DNA of 33,029 nucleotides from Treponema sp. (GTDB taxonomy: Bacteria; Spirochaetota; Spirochaetia; Treponematales; Breznakiellaceae), in the NCBI GenBank assembly GCA_031257675.1, contig JAIROG010000022.1, forward strand, positions 1 through 33,029. Direction: 5' to 3'. The notes under the pieces are model-generated. The model was not told the DNA's origin. It searched no databases and was given only the letters and a program-made list of their open reading frames with translations. This document shows positions 9,249 to 33,029 of the stretch, in pieces. The translations under genes and the position numbers were made by a program. Position 1 is the first letter of the stretch, and every line of letters starts with the position of its first letter.

Positions 9249-10285
9249 TTGGAAACATCCAGAAACGTTCTTGTCAAGCTCATTACATCGGTGCAGAAAA
9301 CGCTGGAAAACTCGCTTGCGACTATTGCATCAGTGAATACGGATATAAAGGTGTTGGCAATTAACGCCAAAATACAGGCGGCGCGGGCGGGAGCGGCAGG
9401 CGCCAGCTTTGGGGTTGTCGCCGATGAGATGGGCAAACTGGCCGCGCATACCGGGGACATACTAGCGGATATTCATACCGGTATGATGGGCGCGATACAT
9501 GGACTATCGAACTGGATGGAAAGTGACTCGCGGGGGCAACGGCTCGCGCAGATGGCCGCTCACAACATTGACATTATTGACCGCAACCTGTACGAACGGT
9601 CATGCGATGTCCGCTGGTGGGCTACGGACAGCGCGATAGTCAACGCCGCGGATGAACATTCCAAAGAAAAATCGCCTTTGCCTCCCACCGCATGGGGGTG
9701 ATTTTGGAGGCTTATACCGTCTATTTTGATCTCATTTTGTGTGATATGAATGGAATTATCCTCTGCAACGGCAGGCCGGACAGGTACCGTTGCGCCGGAC
9801 TCAACATGAGGCGGCATTCATGGTTTAATCAGGCGCTGGCAAGCCATAGGGGTTCGGAATACGGTTTTGAAGGTCCGCTTTCCTCCGATCTCGCGGATGG
9901 AAAGAACACGCTTGTTTACTCATGCGGCGTCCGCGAGCATGGACAGGCGGACGGCAAATTGCTGGGCGTATTGGAAGTGGTTTTCAACTGGGATGCGCTG
10001 GGACGGGAAGTCCTGCTTCAAGCGCGGTCCGTCCTTTCCGAGGAAACGGAAAACGCCGTCAAATGTTATATCTGCGTCCCGGACGGCGTAATTGTGTCAT
10101 CATCCGAAAAGACTGATCCCGGCGGAAAACTCACGTTTGGCAATCTTCCCGAAATCATCCAATCCAAATTCACGACGCAAAACGGCGTGTTAATCGGCGC
10201 CGCACTGTCACGCGGCTTTGAAACTTACAGAACAGGCTGGATATCTATCATTATGGAAGGCGACGCGGCAAACAGTCTTATTTGA
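9249..10285 (+). pseudogene. Chemoreceptor-like protein with Cache-type sensor, frameshifted
   Basis: Two frames together make one protein of about 345 residues. The first (TTG 9249, AAGGAG at 9237-9242) has the methyl-accepting chemotaxis signalling hairpin, with IKVLAINAKIQAARAG and FGVVADEMGKLA, and then RSCDVRWWATDSAIV before stopping at 9701. The second continues HRMGVILEAYTVYFDL and a Cache/PDC-like ligand domain (RHSWFNQAL; GVLEVVFNWDALG) to 10285. The join is at GAAAAAT (9666-9672): adding one A would restore a single frame. In this type of receptor the signalling part is N-terminal and short and the sensor C-terminal, with no membrane helix visible. Either a real one-base deletion, a sequencing error or a -1 slippage site. 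Follows ald by 81 bases. Confidence 0.75.
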
Positions 10286-10554: not shown

Positions 10555-10582
10555 TTGACAAACTTAAAAACTTTTTTATAAA
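10555..10582 (+). promoter_or_regulatory. Promoter of the secreted-peptide operon
   Basis: TTGACA (10555-10560), 16 bases, TATAAA (10577-10582) in a very AT-rich stretch. Transcription would start near 10590, about 30 bases before the first ATG. Confidence 0.7.
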
Positions 10583-10618
10583 ATTAAGTGAACTCTATTA
10601 TTATTTGGAGGATGGCTT

Positions 10619-11014
10619 ATGAAAAAGGTCATTGCTTTGATAGTGATAATGGCGATCTTTTCTACGACAGCATTTGCCGCGCCGTTATCGGTTGCCGGTT
10701 CTTCGGACGCCCTGTCCGCGGAAACCTCTCTTTCTTCCCAATCAGACGTAGATTTGTTCGCCGATGTACATGTCGCCGCTTTAACGCCGGAACAAGCCCA
10801 AGCCGTCGAAGGCGCGGGTCCCTTTGGAGCCATTCTCGGTGGAATTGTAGGGCTTGTAACTACTGTTATCACCACGGTAAATTATGTGAACAACAACGCT
10901 ATAAATTATAAAACACCAGCGGGAATTTATGACATAACAATATGTGCATTATCCAATGCTCTTATTTGGGGCGGATTGTATACATCCGCAGGGGCAGGAC
11001 TTATACCATTCTGA
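10619..11014 (+). CDS. Secreted peptide precursor with a double-glycine-like motif
   Basis: 131 residues from ATG 10619, with GGAGG at 10607-10611. Residues 1-20 form a Sec signal peptide (MKKVIALIVIMAIF..., cleavage after AFA). A polar, acidic stretch follows to about residue 50, then ALTPEQAQAVEGA (54-66), which resembles the leaders that C39 peptidases cut after GG or GA in class II bacteriocins. The remaining 65 residues (GPFGAILGGIVGLV..., ending GLIPF) are hydrophobic with several GxxxG pairs (G70/G74/G78, and G118-G127), as in membrane-active peptides. It heads an operon with a paralogue and a C39-like peptidase. I do not know a named family for it; bacteriocin-like function is inference. 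Having both a Sec signal and a double-glycine-type motif is unusual. Confidence 0.75.
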   Translation: MKKVIALIVIMAIFSTTAFAAPLSVAGSSDALSAETSLSSQSDVDLFADVHVAALTPEQAQAVEGAGPFGAILGGIVGLVTTVITTVNYVNNNAINYKTPAGIYDITICALSNALIWGGLYTSAGAGLIPF

Positions 11015-11048
11015 AGTTCAGAACAAGCGATTTTTTAAGGAGTTTTTT

Positions 11049-11368
11049 ATGAAAAAGATTATATCTATAGCATTACTGTTGGTATTTCCATATAGTGTGT
11101 TTGCTGCACCTATAACGGCATTCGATTTGTTGGATTCCCCGGAAAATCATATTCAAATGAATCTCGAAGCGGATAGTCTTTTTGCTGATGTGGATAGAGT
11201 GGCAACACCTCTTACTTTGGAATTTTACAAACTATCAACTCAATAAATAATGGAGCGTTCAGTGTTTCAACTCCTAAAGATATTGTGAATACAGCAATTG
11301 CAGGAATATTGACCATAGGAGCATCTGCGGCGGGCGGGGCATATTTTGGTAGTTATCTTCCCTTCTAA
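11049..11368 (+). pseudogene. Second secreted peptide precursor, paralogue, frameshifted
   Basis: ATG 11049 gives MKKIISIALLLVFPYSVFA, a Sec signal peptide very like that of the preceding gene, followed by an acidic stretch and SLFADVDRVA, matching DLFADVHVAA in the first peptide. This frame stops at TAA 11244-11246. The -1 frame then continues with YFGILQTINSINNGAFSV and ends GGAYFGSYLPF at TAA 11366-11368, matching the end of the first peptide (NYVNNNAINY... and AGAGLIPF). A single shift near 11190-11215 would join them into about 105 residues. The LTPEQ...EGA segment of the first peptide is not evident. AAGGAG lies at 11037-11042. Confidence 0.65.
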
Positions 11369-11376
11369 GATAAAGT

Positions 11377-11820
11377 ATGATTATGAAGCGTATTAGTCTC
11401 TTTATTTTATTTTCTTTTTTTGTCTATTCTCTTAATGGACAGACAAATGAGAATCTAAATAATATTATATTAACAGAAAGAAATATGAGCGGCGCATCGT
11501 ATAAATTTGCAGGCGGCATGCCGCTGGGCTTCGCGGATATTTATAAAGCGACTGCGGGAATCGCTGATAATGACACCATTATTAAGAAAGCCAAAAGATG
11601 GCGCGCCGCTTCAATTGGGCTTGCGTCGTTTTCAGCGGTTGCAAGTGTCTTTGCGGCGGGTAGCTTGATACAGAGGGAAAAGAAACTGTCTGACGCAGGT
11701 TTGTATGCGGCAATCGGGTTATTTGTATCGGCGATTATAGCAGGGGACTTGTGTCAGCAAAATACGCAAAAAGCGGTGAATAATTATAATTTGTATATAA
11801 TGGGAATACCGGTTAAATGA
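11377..11820 (+). CDS. Small secreted or membrane protein of the peptide operon
   Basis: 147 residues from ATG 11377, or 145 from ATG 11383; neither has a good ribosome binding site. Residues 3-21 look like a signal peptide (KRISLFILFSFFVYSLNG). After a polar segment come a basic patch (KKAKRWR, 70-76) and two hydrophobic segments at about 77-98 and 107-124, rich in Ala and Gly. The stop overlaps the next start in ATGA (11817-11820), so the two are translationally coupled. I do not recognise the family. In a bacteriocin-like cluster a small two-helix protein could be an immunity or accessory protein, but nothing in the sequence proves that. Confidence 0.65.
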   Translation: MIMKRISLFILFSFFVYSLNGQTNENLNNIILTERNMSGASYKFAGGMPLGFADIYKATAGIADNDTIIKKAKRWRAASIGLASFSAVASVFAAGSLIQREKKLSDAGLYAAIGLFVSAIIAGDLCQQNTQKAVNNYNLYIMGIPVK

Positions 11821-12176
11821 GACATTTGCTGTTATTAGCATCGGCAATAATAATGCTTTCCTGTCAAAACGAAGGGCGATGGTATCCGTCTGCGAACGTG
11901 GAAGTGTTCAACTACTACGAATACACGACGCAGTCCGGCGGAAAAGCGCTGGCGGTAACGTTGACGGTTCACAACACGAGCGGCGCGTCAATAACAAGCG
12001 GCGCCATAACGGTCAAAGCGGTTACAGACAAACATGAGTACCTGCAAACAGCGGGGGTGTCCGGTAAAATAACACCGGGCGGGAAGATGGCGGCGAACGT
12101 TACGGTCGCGTATCTTGAAAGCGGCGAGCGGGTTCTTGACAACGAAATAAGCGTCTATGACGCCTATTTTGATTAG
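11817..12176 (+). CDS. Small lipoprotein with an immunoglobulin-like (FxLYD-type) domain
   Basis: 119 residues. MRHLLLLASAIIMLSCQ is a lipoprotein signal with the lipobox LSC and Cys16 as the lipidated residue. The mature part looks all-beta: ALAVTLTVHNTSGASITSG and, later, GKITPGGKMAANVTVAYLE, a pattern of FxLYD/DUF3426-like domains found in bacterial surface lipoproteins. Its ATG overlaps the preceding stop by four bases and it ends 9 bases before the C39 gene, so it belongs to the peptide operon. Likely anchored in the periplasmic face of a membrane, possibly binding the peptide or peptidase; this is inference. Confidence 0.7.
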   Translation: MRHLLLLASAIIMLSCQNEGRWYPSANVEVFNYYEYTTQSGGKALAVTLTVHNTSGASITSGAITVKAVTDKHEYLQTAGVSGKITPGGKMAANVTVAYLESGERVLDNEISVYDAYFD

Positions 12177-12185
12177 GACGGCGCC

Positions 12186-12773
12186 ATGACGGTATTTTTG
12201 TTCAGCCTTTTGACAACGGCGCTTCTTTCCGAAGAGGAGTTGCGGTTCGCGTACAACAGCAAGCAGGGCGCCGACACGTCTTGCGGAATAGCGGCGACCG
12301 CATCTTTGCTCAATCAGTACTGGAACATACCGGTTGCAGAATCGGATTTGTATCAGGAGATGATTTTCAATAACGTGCGGGAAGGGGATGTCAATTACAG
12401 CATAAGCTTCAAGACCATTATAGACAGCCTCTCGCAATACGAAGTGGCGGCGCGCGCGTATAAGATGGATTGGGATGTGTTGCAGGACGCGCTAACTAAA
12501 GGTTACGCGCCGATACTAATTCATTACGACAAACCGAATCCGCATTTCGCGCTGTTGATGCATATCGAAGGCGATTATTTGTTTGTAGCGGATCCGGCGC
12601 AGGGTTTCGGACTGGTACATAAAACGGTCTTCACGAAGAATTATTCCGAAAACGTGATGCTTACGGCGTTGCGGACTGCGGCAAAAAACAAGGATGCGAT
12701 AGAGAACGCTGTCGCCTCCGCGCGAGGGCGGTTGGACAAACTGCGCGGACTGGCGCGCCGGCGGCTGCGATGA
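12186..12773 (+). CDS. Secreted C39-type cysteine peptidase
   Basis: 195 residues. A short hydrophobic N-terminus (MTVFLFSLLTTALLS) looks like a signal peptide, which would place the enzyme in the periplasm. The C39 core follows: Gln27 and Cys33 in KQGADTSCGIAATASLL, His120 in PNPHFALLMH and Asp136 in FVADPAQGFG. These are the oxyanion Gln and the Cys-His-Asp triad in the family order. Unlike bacteriocin exporters it has no ABC transporter part, and the protein ends in a basic helical tail (LRGLARRRLR). C39 peptidases cut leader peptides after double-glycine motifs; the first gene of this operon carries such a motif, so it is the obvious candidate substrate. The ribosome binding site is weak; the stop overlaps the next ATG as ATGA (12770-12773). 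Confidence 0.8.
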   Translation: MTVFLFSLLTTALLSEEELRFAYNSKQGADTSCGIAATASLLNQYWNIPVAESDLYQEMIFNNVREGDVNYSISFKTIIDSLSQYEVAARAYKMDWDVLQDALTKGYAPILIHYDKPNPHFALLMHIEGDYLFVADPAQGFGLVHKTVFTKNYSENVMLTALRTAAKNKDAIENAVASARGRLDKLRGLARRRLR

Positions 12774-13531
12774 GTCAGGCGACGCGCAGACTGTTGGGCG
12801 CATTGCCGCTGGGAGCAGCCGGCGCGCTATGAGCGCAGGAAGGCGATTGCCAACGGTACGATCTCGTGAGAGGGGATGTGAGGGGGGAATATACATTCTT
12901 AACCAATCATACGGTGAGCGTACATGCGCCGTATACGTTTGGATGGCATAACTGGAGGGAGAGCCGGAATCCCGCGCTGTATTCTTTCGGGGACATGCGG
13001 GTATCCTACGAATATTTGAAACAATCGGGACATATCAACGTATTTTTCGGCCCGCACTTTACGGTTCCGCTGTATGAAGCGGACGAATACGCGGCGCGTG
13101 AAGGGGTGTATGCCGGCGGGGACGGACGGTATAAGGCGGGTTTTTCTGTGTCGGTAACTGGGATGCGCGATCCGGTGGTGTGGAACGCAGGATTGTCTTA
13201 TGATGTGGGGCTGCCAAAACGGGAGCGGTTCTATACGTCGGTCGCGCCGGGAAACATACAGGTTTCGGGCGGGTTTTCCGATTTATTGAACGAGCGTTTC
13301 GGGTTTTCTTTCGCTTTTGTACAAGCGGTCATTTTGCCGCCCGTTAAAGACGGGGCATGGAAAAGAGACGATACGACTGTTTCAACGGCGGGAACGGGAG
13401 AGTTTTTTATGCTATTTGAAAAAGATTATGTAAGGTTCTCGGTGGAAATACCGCTGTATCCGTGGGGCGGCGCGGTTGTGGCGGGAATTACGTATGGGCA
13501 CCGGTTTGACACAGGCAGGGGATCGCGATGA
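12770..13531 (+). pseudogene. Outer-membrane-barrel-like protein with an in-frame TGA
   Basis: One frame of 254 codons runs from ATG 12770 to TGA 13529-13531, broken by TGA at 12830-12832. Before the stop is a signal-peptide-like N-terminus (MSQATRRLLGALPLGAAGAL); after it come AQEGD and then about 220 residues of alternating polar and aromatic strands (GEYTFLTNHTVSVHAPYTFG; MRVSYEYLKQSGHINVFFG; VRFSVEIPLYPWGGAVVAG) as in small outer-membrane beta-barrels. The stop sits at the expected signal cleavage site, so a real, exported protein seems to have been inactivated recently. GTG 12866 could restart a 221-residue product, but without a signal peptide. Other genes here end in TGA, so TGA is not recoded. 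Confidence 0.65.
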
Positions 13532-13731: not shown

Positions 13732-15837
13732 ATGAGCGAACCTTCGTTGAGGCGAATTTCAGTCCGGCGGCAATTCCTTGTTTTTTCCATTCTTTTTTTT
13801 CTGTTTATCGTAGGGGCGGAAACAGGCGCGTTTTTCCTTTCCATGCGCCAAATAGTCCGCAAAAATCTGGCGCAGGAGTTGACCCGCCTTTTGGAAACGA
13901 GCAGACTCAAACTGGAGTCTTCGGTCAATTCGGAAATAGCCATCGCCCTTAAAATGGCGGGATCCCCCCTCATCCAGCGCTATTTTTTGTAGCCGGAAGA
14001 CCCAGAACTGGAACAGCTTGCCTTCGAAGAAATCGCCGGATACCGCGGCGCCTTTAAGGGGAACACGGTTTTTTGGATAAGCGACAAAGACAAGCGTTTC
14101 TACTCTGACGACGCCTATGTGTACACCTTGGATCCCAGCAATCCAGCTGAATACTGGTACAACATGACCCTCTATGAGACCGAGCGTTTCAACTTCAACA
14201 TTAACTACAATGATACGCTTAAAAAAACCATGCTTTGGATCAACGCGCCGGTGTTTTCTCAAGGGAAAGCTGCAGGTCTCGTGGGAACCGGCATAGAGCT
14301 TACCGAATTCATTAATTCCCTCTATGGGGATGTAAACGGCGACATAAGGCTCTACCTGTTCAACCGGCACGGAGAGATAACCGGCGCTCCGGACGACCAG
14401 TTGTTGATAGACAAAGTTTCCCTTGCGGAGTATTTGGGAACAGCGGGGGGCGCGATCCTCTCCCAGTCGGAAAAACTTTGAGACAAGCAGATTGCCACCT
14501 TTATTTCCGGCTCTCTGGAAACAGCGGTCGGCAGACTCCCGCTACTGGATTGGTACATCACCGCTTTCGAACCGATCACCTTCACACTCTACCTGCAATC
14601 CTCTATGACGCTGGTATTTCTTGTGATGGCGCTGGTCATCTTGCTGGTGTTTCTCATCATCAACCTATATATTCAGCGGATTTTTAAGCCTCTGGGAGCC
14701 ATGATGGAGATGCTGAATGCGATTGCGGAAAACTGGGATTTGACGCGGCGGATACAGGTCGACCGCCATGATGAAATCGGCAAGCTGGGGGAATTCTTGA
14801 ATATGACTTTTGATAGGATGAAATCCCTGATCAGCGTCATCAAGATGCAGGCGTCCCAGCTTTCAGATATGGGGATTGACCTTTCCGCCGAAATGAACAA
14901 AACTGCCGTTGAAATCCATGGGATAACCGGATATATTCAAAAGATTAAGGGGCGGTCGAAGCGTCAGTTTGAGGCGGCCAAGGAATTAGGAGCGTCCATG
15001 AACCGAATCATGTCGCGGGACGGCGCGCTTCACGACAACATCACGGTTCAGTCTGACAGCATTTCCCAGTCTTCCACGTCCATTGAACAGATGTTTAAGA
15101 ATATTCATGCGGTTACCGAAAGTCTGATAAAAAACACCGGAAACATGAAAGATCTGGCTGCGGCTTCTGATACTGGCAGGTCGAATTTACAAAAGGTTTC
15201 CGCAACGATCCAAAAAATAGAGCGGGACTCAGAGGGGCTTTTAGAAATTAACACGGTCATAAAGAACATTTCCGTCCAAACCAACCTTTTGTCTATGAAC
15301 GCCGCTATAGAAGCGGCTCACGCCGGAGAAGCGGGAAAAGGTTTTGCCGTAGTAGCCGATGAAATACGGAAACTGGCGGAGTCCGCGGCGGAACAGTCAA
15401 AGACCTCAGGCGACGTGCTTAAAAACATTAAAGGATCCATCAACTCCATAGCCCAATCAACCGGGGGCGTGATCAAGCAGTTTGAACTCATTGAACGGGA
15501 AGTTCAGACCGTGTCTGAGCAGGAAGCGGGGATCCGATCCGCTATGGTAGAACAGGAAATCGGCGGCAGAAGCGTTTTGGAAGCCATATCCCGCTTGCAT
15601 GAGGTTGCCGAAATGGTTTTCCAAGCCTCAGGAGGCATGACTGCGGAGTGTAAAGCGGCATTAACCCAAAGCGCCGGTCTGGAAGGGCTGACCCGAAGCG
15701 CTGACGAGGAGATCAATGAAATAGCCGCCAACTCGGATCATATCAACGGCACGGTTATACGCATTAATGAGATCAGCGAAAAGAACAAGTCCACTATCAA
15801 CACTCTGGTGGAGGAAGTGGCGAAGTTTAAGGTGTAG
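13732..15837 (+). pseudogene. Methyl-accepting chemotaxis protein with two in-frame stops
   Basis: A single frame of 702 codons from ATG 13732 is interrupted by TAG 13990-13992 and TGA 14479-14481. The decoded order is a complete transmembrane receptor: helix 1 (RRQFLVFSILFFLFIVGAE), an extracytoplasmic Cache sensor (GNTVFWISDKDKRFYSDD; LWINAPVFSQGKAAGLVGTG), helix 2 ([20 protein letters not shown] near residue 292), HAMP, and the signalling hairpin [20 protein letters not shown] with [13 protein letters not shown] near residue 525. The sequence between and after the stops is well conserved, so the stops are young or are read through. CAG to TAG and CGA to TGA are the simplest origins. A 410-residue restart from 14605 would keep helix 2, HAMP and the signalling part but lose the sensor. 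Confidence 0.85.
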
Positions 15838-31728: not shown

Positions 31729-31938
31729 TTATAAATTAGAGTGGGAAGAGCAATAACTGAGCATGTCCGTCCGTTTTATCGCCCACTGTCCGTTTATGTC
31801 TTTTTTCGCTTTTAGCTCGCCTCTGTGGACAAGCCGTAGAATAGTAATGGGGTGTACACGAAAAAAGTTCGCCGTGTCCCGGATAGATAAAATACCGGGG
31901 AGGGTGTTTATATAGTCTTCGTACTCCTCGCTTATCAT
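31729..31938 (-). CDS. Small helix-turn-helix (excisionase-like) protein
   Basis: 69 residues from ATG 31938; the frame reaches TTG 31947. The central part, LSIRDTANFFRVHPITILRL followed by VHRGELKAKKDINGQWAIKR, is the MerR/Xis-type DNA-binding helix-turn-helix with wing. It overlaps the longer ORF described next almost completely but in another frame; by sequence quality this frame is the real one over 31729-31938. Probably an early phage regulator or excisionase-like protein; the exact role is unknown. Confidence 0.65.
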   Translation of the reverse strand: MISEEYEDYINTLPGILSIRDTANFFRVHPITILRLVHRGELKAKKDINGQWAIKRTDMLSYCSSHSNL

Positions 31939-32077
31939 AGTCTTCAATTCCTTCCGGGAATATCCTGTAGTCTTTTCCTACGGAGGTTCCCTCGATGGCG
32001 CCCATAAGCAGCAGGTACCGCACCTGATGACAAGCCAAGCTGAGGCGCTCCGCCGCCTCCTTAATGGTCATCAGCAT
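31736..32077 (-). CDS. Helix-turn-helix protein, real over its first 50 or so residues
   Basis: ATG 32077 has AAGGAGG (32090-32084) at proper spacing and encodes MTIKEAAERLSLACHQVRYL, then LMGAIEGTSVGKDYRIFPEG, a second MerR/Xis-type DNA-binding domain. After IEDYDKRG the frame runs on for 60 residues that look like an out-of-frame reading of the neighbouring small protein, so the original stop has probably been lost or a frameshift has fused the frames. Its start overlaps the end of gemA by 17 bases, as is usual in phage early operons. Confidence 0.5.
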   Translation of the reverse strand: MLMTIKEAAERLSLACHQVRYLLLMGAIEGTSVGKDYRIFPEGIEDYDKRGVRRLYKHPPRYFIYPGHGELFSCTPHYYSTACPQRRAKSEKRHKRTVGDKTDGHAQLLLFPL

Positions 32078-32555
32078 GGCGCGCCTCCTTTCCGTCCGGT
32101 CCGTCCGGGTCGAGTCCGGCTTTTTCAGCGATGTCGCGCAGGGCGAGTATGACTTTCCGGGCTTCCTCGCGCCCAAGGAAGCGGATGTCGTCAACGCCGC
32201 CTATGCGTCTTGTCATCGTCCGGAGGGAGCGGATGTCTTTTTTCCTGCTCGCCAAGTCCCACAAGCCCCTGATATAGTACTCCTGCCGGGCGGTGATCCA
32301 CGCCGGATCGCGCTTTGCCTCCGCGTCCGTTTCTTTCAAGGCGGGATCGCCCTTGGCTTTGAGGCGGAAGCCGAGCGCTTTGAAGGCGGAGAGGGCGTTG
32401 TTGTACTGCCTCCACGTCCGTATGGAGGCCGCCGATTCAACGCCGACCGCCCCCAGCAGCAGGGCGCGGTACGCCTCGTCGTCAAGGGAGCATTCACGTT
32501 TCGCCACATGAAGAATCTTCATCCATTTTTTTTGCGCGGGAGACATGTCCGCCAT
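32061..32555 (-). CDS. gemA: Mu-like gp16/GemA family protein (DUF1018)
   Basis: 164 residues from ATG 32555 with GGAGG about 8 bases upstream. The N-terminus (KKWMKILHVAKRECSLDDEA, YRALLLGAVGVESAAS) and the central segment GLWDLASRKKDIRSLRTMTR with GGVDDIRFLGREEARKVILA match the GemA/gp16 family of phage Mu, an early-region protein reported to affect host gyrase and supercoiling genes. Middle residues contain a charged linker (KETDAEAKRDPAW). No lesion is seen. The order DUF3164 then gemA is that of Mu-like prophages. Confidence 0.8.
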   Translation of the reverse strand: MADMSPAQKKWMKILHVAKRECSLDDEAYRALLLGAVGVESAASIRTWRQYNNALSAFKALGFRLKAKGDPALKETDAEAKRDPAWITARQEYYIRGLWDLASRKKDIRSLRTMTRRIGGVDDIRFLGREEARKVILALRDIAEKAGLDPDGPDGKEARHADDH

Positions 32556-32582
32556 TTGTCTTTCCTCCTTTGATTTAAGACA

Positions 32583-32600
32583 GCCGGGCTTGCGCCCGGC
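32583..32600 (-). terminator. Hairpin between DUF3164 gene and gemA
   Basis: GCCGGGC and GCCCGGC pair around a 4-base loop in the 54-base gap. On the minus strand TGTCTTAAATC follows, so it is a weak or partial terminator. Confidence 0.4.
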
Positions 32601-32609
32601 CGCGGTTTG

Positions 32610-33029
32610 CTAGATGGACGCGATGTCCAGGGGGATTTGCTCGTAAGAGCCGTCCTCCCGGCGCTCGTAGAAACGCAGATAGGTCTTGGTTGAGGCGACC
32701 TGGACGCTGTCGGATATCGCCCGCATGGCCTCGCGCCACTCGGCGTCCTCAATGGCGAGGCGGCGCAGGCCGAGTATGCGGTTTTTGTTGATGTTGCCCT
32801 GCTTGTCAACGTAGAAGGCGTCCTCGACGAGGAGCTTGATCTCCGAGCGGGAGCCGTCCGCCCACCTGCGGACGCGGTTGTCCACGAGCGTTTTCGCCAC
32901 CTGCAATTTCTCGTTGAATTGTATAGTGTCGTTGACCGCCGCTTGCAGCTTGTAGCGCCCGTCGTAGGTGGCGAGGGCGATGTTGCCCTTCTTTCCGCCC
33001 CATGAAACCTTGTGCTGCTCCGCGGAGAG
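32610..33029 (-). CDS. DUF3164 protein of a Mu-like prophage, partial
   Basis: The C-terminal 139 residues are in the window; the start lies beyond base 33029. GKKGNIALATYDGRYKLQAA, RRWADGSRSEIKLLVEDAFY, NRILGLRRLAIEDAEWREAM and SVQVASTKTYLRFYERRE are the conserved blocks of DUF3164, a family in the early region of Mu-like phages, whose function is not established. It precedes gemA on the same strand, so the transcript enters from outside the window. Confidence 0.8.
   Translation of the reverse strand, partial: LSAEQHKVSWGGKKGNIALATYDGRYKLQAAVNDTIQFNEKLQVAKTLVDNRVRRWADGSRSEIKLLVEDAFYVDKQGNINKNRILGLRRLAIEDAEWREAMRAISDSVQVASTKTYLRFYERREDGSYEQIPLDIASI

What the first reader, a model, noticed from the sequence alone, without database searches (positions are those of the whole stretch)
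10555..13531. Operon for Sec-exported double-glycine-like peptides with a stand-alone secreted C39 peptidase
The sequence shows one promoter followed by two paralogous peptide precursors, a small two-helix protein, a lipoprotein, a C39-type peptidase with a signal peptide and a barrel-like protein, with three ATGA overlaps. The first precursor has a Sec signal and, 45 residues later, LTPEQAQAVEGA, which looks like a double-glycine leader followed by a GxxxG-rich hydrophobic peptide. From family knowledge, C39 domains that cut such leaders normally sit on ABC exporters in the cytoplasm. Here export by Sec and maturation in the periplasm is inferred. That would be a new layout for bacteriocin-like or signalling peptides in a spirochaete.
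Basis: partly seen in the sequence, partly recalled or inferred. Interest (0 to 1): 0.75.

Follow-up and report, generated by a model that had tools for sequence, protein, structure and literature searches.

The report
Spirochaete toxin-peptide export operon (damaged copy)
This gene cluster in a termite-gut spirochaete is a partly broken copy of an export pathway found across spirochaetes, in which toxin-like proteins cross the inner membrane by the ordinary Sec route, are probably trimmed at a double-glycine site by a stand-alone peptidase outside the cytoplasm, and probably leave through an outer-membrane channel like the one that exports amyloid in Pseudomonas; it matters because it suggests what such free-standing peptidases cut.

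Summary
The operon is real. Precursor 1 has a Sec signal and then a double-glycine-type site (LTPEQAQAVEGA|GPFGAILGG). The C39 peptidase keeps Q, Cys, His and Asp. The last gene belongs to a family with a predicted 12-strand outer-membrane barrel, best matched by FapF, the Pseudomonas amyloid channel. Corrections: precursor 2 is frameshifted and lacks the site; the barrel gene has an in-frame TGA and a 27-residue deletion; there are two ATGA overlaps, not three; the peptidase N-terminus is only a short hydrophobic segment. This copy is probably decaying.

Relatives make the case. C39 sits beside a FapF-like barrel in 33 of 38 spirochaete loci. Sec-signal precursors carry L(-12)..E/D/Q(-8)..V/I(-4).G(-2) in 22 of 27 cases (1.15 expected). 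In seven of ten genomes checked, this peptidase is the only C39 found. The matured parts are polymorphic: GxxxG peptides, L,D-transpeptidase-like domains and two unnamed families, mostly beside a secreted or membrane companion that looks like immunity.

Best reading: Sec, C39 cleavage outside the cytoplasm, FapF-like export of antibacterial toxins. It is a relative of Fap and the Neisseria nap island with a new substrate signal and cargo. Function is inferred, not shown.

The parts
10555..10584 (+). sigma-70-like promoter TTGACA-18-TAAAAT
   Evidence: 11 of 12 matches; about 5 promoter-like sites expected by chance in the region
10619..11014 (+). Precursor 1 (131 aa): Sec signal peptide, FADV box, double-glycine-type site LTPEQAQAVEGA| after residue 66, then a 65-aa GxxxG-rich hydrophobic core ending LIPF
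   Evidence: leader conserved in L016, L017, L062, L115-L117, L120, L121
11049..11369 (+). Precursor 2, decayed paralogue: Sec signal and FADV box intact to about 11230, then frameshift; no recognisable GG/GA site; core ends GGAYFGSYLPF
   Evidence: three-frame translation
11377..11820 (+). 147-aa exported protein with two hydrophobic helices, ends NNYNLYIMGIPVK; conserved companion of the GxxxG precursors (candidate immunity protein, inferred)
   Evidence: homologues beside precursors in L062, L115, L119, L028; no confident Pfam hit
11817..12176 (+). Lipoprotein (119 aa; lipobox ..LSC), conserved in about 20 loci beside C39/barrel; role unknown
   Evidence: E 3e-17 to 8e-49 across loci; weak DUF4352
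12186..12773 (+). Stand-alone C39 peptidase, catalytic residues intact (Q27, C33, H120, D136), short hydrophobic N-terminus
   Evidence: (PF03412 1.7e-14; best NCBIfam FapD 1.4e-10, below its cut-off)
12770..13531 (+). FapF-like outer-membrane barrel gene, damaged: in-frame TGA at 12830-12832 and a 27-residue internal deletion against relatives
   Evidence: only convincing PDB sequence hits are FapF, E about 0.003; Foldseek of intact relative L062: FapF E about 1e-12, TM about 0.7

Best explanation
The operon is a decaying copy of a spirochaete export pathway for antibacterial toxins. The substrate is made with a two-part leader: a Sec signal peptide, then a spacer of about 20-50 residues that ends in a double-glycine-type site. 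Sec takes it across the inner membrane and signal peptidase removes the first part. A stand-alone FapD-like C39 peptidase outside the cytoplasm cuts at the double-glycine-type site. The freed core leaves through the adjacent 12-strand FapF-like barrel, helped in some way by the conserved lipoprotein. In this window the core is a glycine-zipper, pore-forming-type peptide and the 147-aa two-helix protein probably protects the producer. In relatives the core can instead be an L,D-transpeptidase-like or other enzyme-like domain with its own companion. Shown by sequence or model: the leader motif, C39 catalytic residues, C39-barrel coupling, barrel fold of an intact relative, cargo diversity and co-localised companions. 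Inferred: the location of C39, cleavage, export through the barrel, toxicity and immunity.
For: Motif L(-12) T/S(-11) E/D/Q(-8) A/M(-7) V/I(-4) G(-2) in 22 of 27 precursors against 1.15 expected. In the NlpC-like cargo family the GG and everything after it are near-invariant while the leader varies. C39 and barrel adjacent in 33 of 38 loci, including loci not used to build the profile (L067 7e-54, L090 1e-32, L072 4e-20). Barrel profile: top four PDB hits FapF; Foldseek top hits FapF, E about 1e-12. C39 is closest to FapD in NCBIfam and to PCAT peptidases in PDB. G003, G014, G047, G072, G056, G154 and G057 have this as the only C39 domain found. Leader and C39 co-occur in 200 family genomes: 9 of 9 C39+ genomes are leader+, P=1e-11, or P=0.002 without the genomes that built the profile. 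Cargo: YkuD E=1.7e-4 to 3e-4 with H..N..SxGC; Gly-zipper and class IIc bacteriocin weak hits; companions with signal peptides, lipoboxes or membrane spans, sometimes duplicated.
Against: No experiment exists. The window's own barrel and second precursor are broken. The C39 N-terminus is not a canonical signal peptide, and in L022 and L065 no hydrophobic segment was found at all. Several C39-barrel loci have no detected precursor nearby. The L,D-transpeptidase assignment is just below Pfam's cut-off, and the NlpC-like cargo has no database match and no usable model. Immunity roles rest on gene position only.
Confidence: 0.68

Rival explanations
1. Fap-like structural system: the cleaved cores build amyloid or surface fibres, with C39 and barrel as their secretion machine and no toxicity.
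For: C39 and barrel are closest to FapD and FapF. Glycine-zipper proteins such as Caulobacter CdzC aggregate on the surface (PMC5380434).
Against: No Asn/Gln-rich repeats were noticed in the precursors read; many cargos look globular, with conserved His/Cys motifs, and have cargo-specific companions.
Confidence: 0.12
2. Self-directed or signalling peptides, as proposed for the gonococcal nap peptides: processed cores act on the producer population (autolysis, stress) rather than on competitors.
For: Same module in the nap island: double-glycine peptides, stand-alone C39, FapF homologue; those peptides promoted autolysis and did not kill competitors (PMC11798529).
Against: The diversity of enzyme-like cargos, each with its own partner, is more typical of competition toxins; nap peptides are 16-36 aa, many cargos here 140-170 aa.
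Confidence: 0.15
3. Conventional double-glycine bacteriocins exported by a C39-ABC transporter elsewhere in the genome; the Sec-like N-terminus is incidental.
For: The own genome holds another C39 domain (C66, interrupted by TAG) and a remnant (C113); G365 has a 722-aa C39 frame.
Against: Seven of ten checked genomes have no other C39 domain at E up to 1e-5. Signal peptides of precursors are strongly conserved, and the GG site mostly lies 43-69 residues in, beyond a usual double-glycine leader.
Confidence: 0.04
4. In this particular genome the operon is an inert remnant: the function in relatives is real, but here the barrel is dead and the system no longer exports anything. This is compatible with the best explanation and is judged separately.
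For: TGA and deletion in the only barrel copy found in the genome; frameshifted precursor 2; second locus on C79 also broken; G002 of the same genus keeps only a fused remnant.
Against: C39, precursor 1, lipoprotein and the 147-aa gene are intact; the genome is an incomplete draft (83%), so errors or a missing barrel are possible.
Confidence: 0.6

Closest known systems
nap island of Neisseria gonorrhoeae (NapABC, NapP, NapF; PMC11798529, 2025)
   Same: Double-glycine peptides, stand-alone C39 peptidase, FapF-type outer-membrane channel, a candidate immunity gene; authors propose cleavage in the periplasm.
   Different: The paper's main text has no mention of a signal peptide and suggests a holin-like NapH for inner-membrane passage. 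Here the full-length leaders start with a Sec-like signal, cargos include 140-170-aa enzyme-like domains, and a lipoprotein is part of the core. nap peptides did not kill competitors in that study.
Fap functional amyloid system of Pseudomonas (FapD, FapF; PMC5557850)
   Same: Sec-exported substrates, C39 peptidase active in the periplasm, 12-strand FapF barrel; barrel fold match E about 1e-12.
   Different: No FapA, FapB, FapC or FapE-like proteins were recognised beside the loci inspected; substrates here have a clear double-glycine-type site, which Fap proteins lack in canonical form; the barrel here has a short N-terminus instead of the long coiled coil.
FapD-FapF pairs co-localised in five further phyla (PMC6173800)
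   Same: Probably the same broad pairing of C39 and barrel.
   Different: That paper reports co-localisation; in the passages read no substrates or leader are identified. Whether spirochaetes were among the five phyla is in a supplement I could not read.
Class II microcins / class IIb bacteriocins with C39-ABC exporters, and Caulobacter Cdz (PMC5380434)
   Same: Double-glycine-type leader logic, glycine-zipper hydrophobic cores, dedicated immunity proteins.
   Different: Those are cut in the cytoplasm by an ABC exporter and leave by type I secretion; here there is a Sec signal, no ABC exporter next to it, and a FapF-like barrel.
Tlde1 / L,D-transpeptidase-type effectors of type VI secretion (PMC9638812, title and abstract only)
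   Same: Several cargos carry a YkuD-like catalytic motif and a companion with a signal peptide or lipobox.
   Different: Delivery route; scores are just below family cut-offs.

Membership tests
Peptidase C39 family (PF03412) | Profile match and catalytic Cys, His, Asp with oxyanion Gln | tested here: met
   PF03412 E=1.7e-14 over cut-off; Q27, C33, H120 invariant and D136 nearly so in 12 relatives
C39-ABC exporter (PCAT) | C39 domain fused to an ABC exporter | tested here: not met
   Stand-alone 195-aa frame; barrel follows. This feature defines the exporter subtype, not the peptidase family
FapD equivalog (NF058616) | Score over the curated cut-off | tested here: not met
   40.9 bits against a cut-off of 330: related, not FapD itself
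Fap amyloid operon | FapB/FapC amyloid subunits with Asn/Gln repeats, FapA, FapE | tested here: not met
   None recognised in the window operon or in the 30-odd loci read, by inspection; no Fap HMMs were run
FapF-type polypeptide channel | 12-strand barrel of FapF fold | tested here: met
   Relative L062: pLDDT 85, 12 strands; Foldseek FapF E about 1e-12; profile hits FapF. The window copy itself is truncated, so met for the family, not shown for this copy
FapF-type polypeptide channel | Trimer, polypeptide export activity | not testable with these tools
   Needs experiment
Double-glycine leader substrates | L(-12) S/T(-11) x x E(-8) L/M/A(-7) x x I/V(-4) x G(-2) G/A(-1) | tested here: met
   Window site LTPEQAQAVEGA has L, T, Q, A, V, G, A at these positions; 22 of 27 relatives match a relaxed pattern. 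-1 is G in 13 of 22; the others have E, A, T, K, Q or D
Sec-exported precursor | Canonical signal peptide | tested here: inconclusive
   Textbook n, h and c regions by inspection and a simple script; no SignalP available
nap-type island | GG peptides + stand-alone C39 + FapF homologue in one locus | tested here: met
   All three element types present in the relatives; direct homology with NapP and NapF was not tested
Polymorphic toxin-immunity system | Constant leader or delivery part with variable toxic cores and adjacent specific immunity | tested here: inconclusive
   Variable cores with constant leader logic and co-varying companions seen; toxicity and immunity untested

The most novel reading that the evidence does not exclude
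A distinct protein-secretion route for polymorphic antibacterial toxins in spirochaetes: a two-part Sec plus double-glycine leader, maturation outside the cytoplasm by a FapD-like C39, and exit through a FapF-like barrel, with interchangeable toxin cores and matching immunity proteins. It would also give the substrate rule for the orphan FapD-FapF pairs reported in other phyla.
Probability: 0.5. Interest if true: 0.85.

Novelty: new variant of a known kind. Interest (0 to 1): 0.68.

Why it matters
The substrate of FapD was reported as unknown (PMC5557850, PMC6173800), and how the nap peptides cross the inner membrane was left open (PMC11798529). These spirochaete loci give many natural FapD-like peptidases beside precursors with a clear Sec signal and an obvious double-glycine-type site, so the rule can be tested directly in vitro. 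If the cargos are toxins, this is a little-noticed weapon system in spirochaetes, including members of dense gut communities, with several unnamed toxin and immunity families.

Tried and rejected
Genome-contig scan with the single peptidase found one locus only. Structure prediction of the NlpC-like cargo failed (pLDDT 43), so no fold claim is made; its PDB profile search gave nothing. The L,D-transpeptidase profile search in PDB gave only sub-threshold YkuD hits. Searching five genomes with the G059 leader found no extra precursors in G109 or others. I considered a C39-ABC exporter elsewhere and rejected it for most relatives. I considered that the third ATGA marks a short gene before the barrel and rejected it: it is the nonsense codon. 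The weak DUF4352, TDE1717, urea transporter and other sub-threshold hits were treated as noise. Literature searches for this combination in spirochaetes found nothing; the library lacks most subscription papers, so this is not proof of absence.
Full report
WHAT IS THERE. The window is one contig (C57) of an incomplete 2.37-Mb draft genome. Its nearest named relative is a Treponema sp. metagenome-assembled genome, 68% identical in the peptidase. The operon at 10555-13531 reads, in order: promoter-like site, precursor 1, precursor 2, a 147-aa two-helix protein, a lipoprotein, a C39 peptidase and a barrel gene. The peptidase hits Peptidase_C39 (E=1.7e-14). Its best NCBIfam match is FapD, the peptidase of the Pseudomonas amyloid operon (1.4e-10, far under that family's cut-off). 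The catalytic Cys and His and the oxyanion Gln are invariant in 12 relatives and the Asp is nearly so.

Precursor 2 changes frame near 11230 and shows no double-glycine-type site. The barrel frame has a TGA at codon 21 and misses 27 residues that L016, L017 and L062 have. The third ATGA 'overlap' is that TGA: the ATG inside it opens an unrelated frame. No other barrel of the family was found in this genome. A second locus on contig C79 holds two more precursors and a broken C39 at the contig end. So the copy here is probably decaying, although a draft genome can also carry errors.

RELATIVES. A profile of the peptidase hits 37 of 394 genomes of the order, about 30 of them as stand-alone frames, and reaches other families of the class and phylum (G645, G673, G437). 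I read gene maps of 38 peptidase-bearing loci. A FapF-like barrel lies next to the peptidase in 33 of them, including loci that were not used to build the barrel profile. A lipoprotein of one family is present in about 20. The gene order of the window is matched by L062/G365, a different genus: precursor, two-helix protein, lipoprotein, C39, barrel.

THE BARREL. The profile of 27 barrels finds FapF as its only convincing hit among 177,635 PDB sequences (E about 0.003). The intact barrel of L062 is predicted with pLDDT 85 and 12 strands. Foldseek returns FapF for nearly all of the top 20 (E about 1e-12, TM about 0.7), with the COG4313 channel 4rl8 among them. Other barrels follow only at E 1e-7 and worse.

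THE LEADER. Precursors beside these peptidases start with a Sec-like signal. After a spacer that often includes FADV they carry L(-12) T/S(-11) E/D/Q(-8) A/M(-7) V/I(-4) G(-2), with G at -1 in 13 of 22. The pattern is met in 22 of 27 precursors; shuffling the same residues gives 1.15. The pattern was drawn up from some of these same precursors, so the contrast is partly circular; the two tests that follow are less so. In the NlpC-like cargo family the GG and all that follows are close to invariant while the leader before it varies, which is what a processing boundary should look like. Across 200 family genomes all nine with the stand-alone C39 also have the leader (P=1e-11, or 0.002 when genomes used to build the profile are left out). 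These P values treat genomes as independent, which related genomes are not. Leader peptides also occur away from the peptidase, for example G003 C69 and G012. Seven of ten genomes checked have no other C39 domain at E up to 1e-5, among them G154, a single-contig genome. That argues against a conventional C39-ABC exporter as the processing enzyme.

THE CARGO. The mature parts fall into groups. (a) GxxxG-rich hydrophobic peptides of 32-69 residues and longer, as in this window, with membrane companions: the two-helix protein; LspA-like proteins in L016 and L017 (PF01252 E=4e-10 and 1e-15); a CPBP-like protein, so named by inspection, in L061 and L019. (b) L,D-transpeptidase-like domains with H..N..SxGC (YkuD E=1.7e-4 to 3e-4, slightly under cut-off; alignment) with a 250-300-aa exported companion (L022, L065, L069, L025, L026, L066); L071 has the domain but ends at the contig edge, and L089 is similar by inspection. 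In L025, L026 and L066 the boundary is YRGG|DVF, which does not meet the full motif. (c) An NlpC-like family (my label, from NDCDIW and HVAL motifs; no database match) with a 116-129-aa exported companion (L023, L059, L060, L067; duplicated in L067). (d) A family with HRNCNTTTSTI and a 205-aa lipoprotein companion (L068, L070; duplicated in L070). A constant delivery part, variable cores and matching, sometimes duplicated companions are typical of toxin-immunity systems. Toxicity and immunity were not tested.

MECHANISM. Because the Sec signal precedes the double-glycine-type site by 20-50 residues, cutting at that site in the cytoplasm would strip the export signal, so cleavage should follow translocation. 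This agrees with FapD, which works in the periplasm (PMC5557850). The weak point is the peptidase's own export. Most N-termini have a short hydrophobic stretch, a few have a canonical signal, and L022 and L065 show none. The proposed path is Sec, C39 cleavage outside the cytoplasm, exit through the FapF-like barrel. Only the sequence features, the barrel model and the gene coupling are shown; the rest is inference.

KNOWN OR NEW. Fap and the gonococcal nap island are the closest known systems, and FapD-FapF pairs were reported in five further phyla (PMC6173800). The general kind is therefore known. What I did not find described is the two-part Sec plus double-glycine leader as the substrate rule, and the polymorphic, enzyme-like cargo with companions in spirochaetes. 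I rate it a new variant of a known kind.

Noticed in passing
window 9249-10285 and 13732-15837: Chemoreceptor genes on both sides of the operon are broken into several frames (for example a TAG stop near 13990 and split frames up to 14605), which fits gene decay around the operon or assembly errors.
   Followed up: no
window 31736-33029 (minus strand): Phage-like genes at the contig end that look Mu-like from the reading frames; not checked with any library.
   Followed up: no
G000 C66:6807-7175 and C113:1322-1486: Two further C39 domains in the same genome, one interrupted by TAG and one with two TGA: apparently dead C39 exporters or fragments.
   Followed up: partly
L016:2294-3253, L017:9654-10490, L120:462-1316: LspA (signal peptidase II)-like membrane proteins sit beside double-glycine precursors (Pfam-supported in L016 and L017 only); whether they are immunity proteins or process something is unknown.
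   Followed up: partly
L073 and L074 (G130, G115): Distant versions: a separate ABC exporter gene, a C39 protein with a canonical signal peptide, and a barrel-like gene in a row, with CPBP/CAAX-like membrane proteins nearby (by inspection); no precursor found.
   Followed up: partly
L118:1607-2266 (G002): A precursor leader fused in frame to the two-helix protein, with C39 and barrel missing: a remnant in the same genus as the window.
   Followed up: partly
L022:7625-8176 and the L065 C39: Peptidases of this pair have no hydrophobic N-terminus from any start codon in their frames, unlike nearly all others; how they would reach the periplasm is unexplained.
   Followed up: partly
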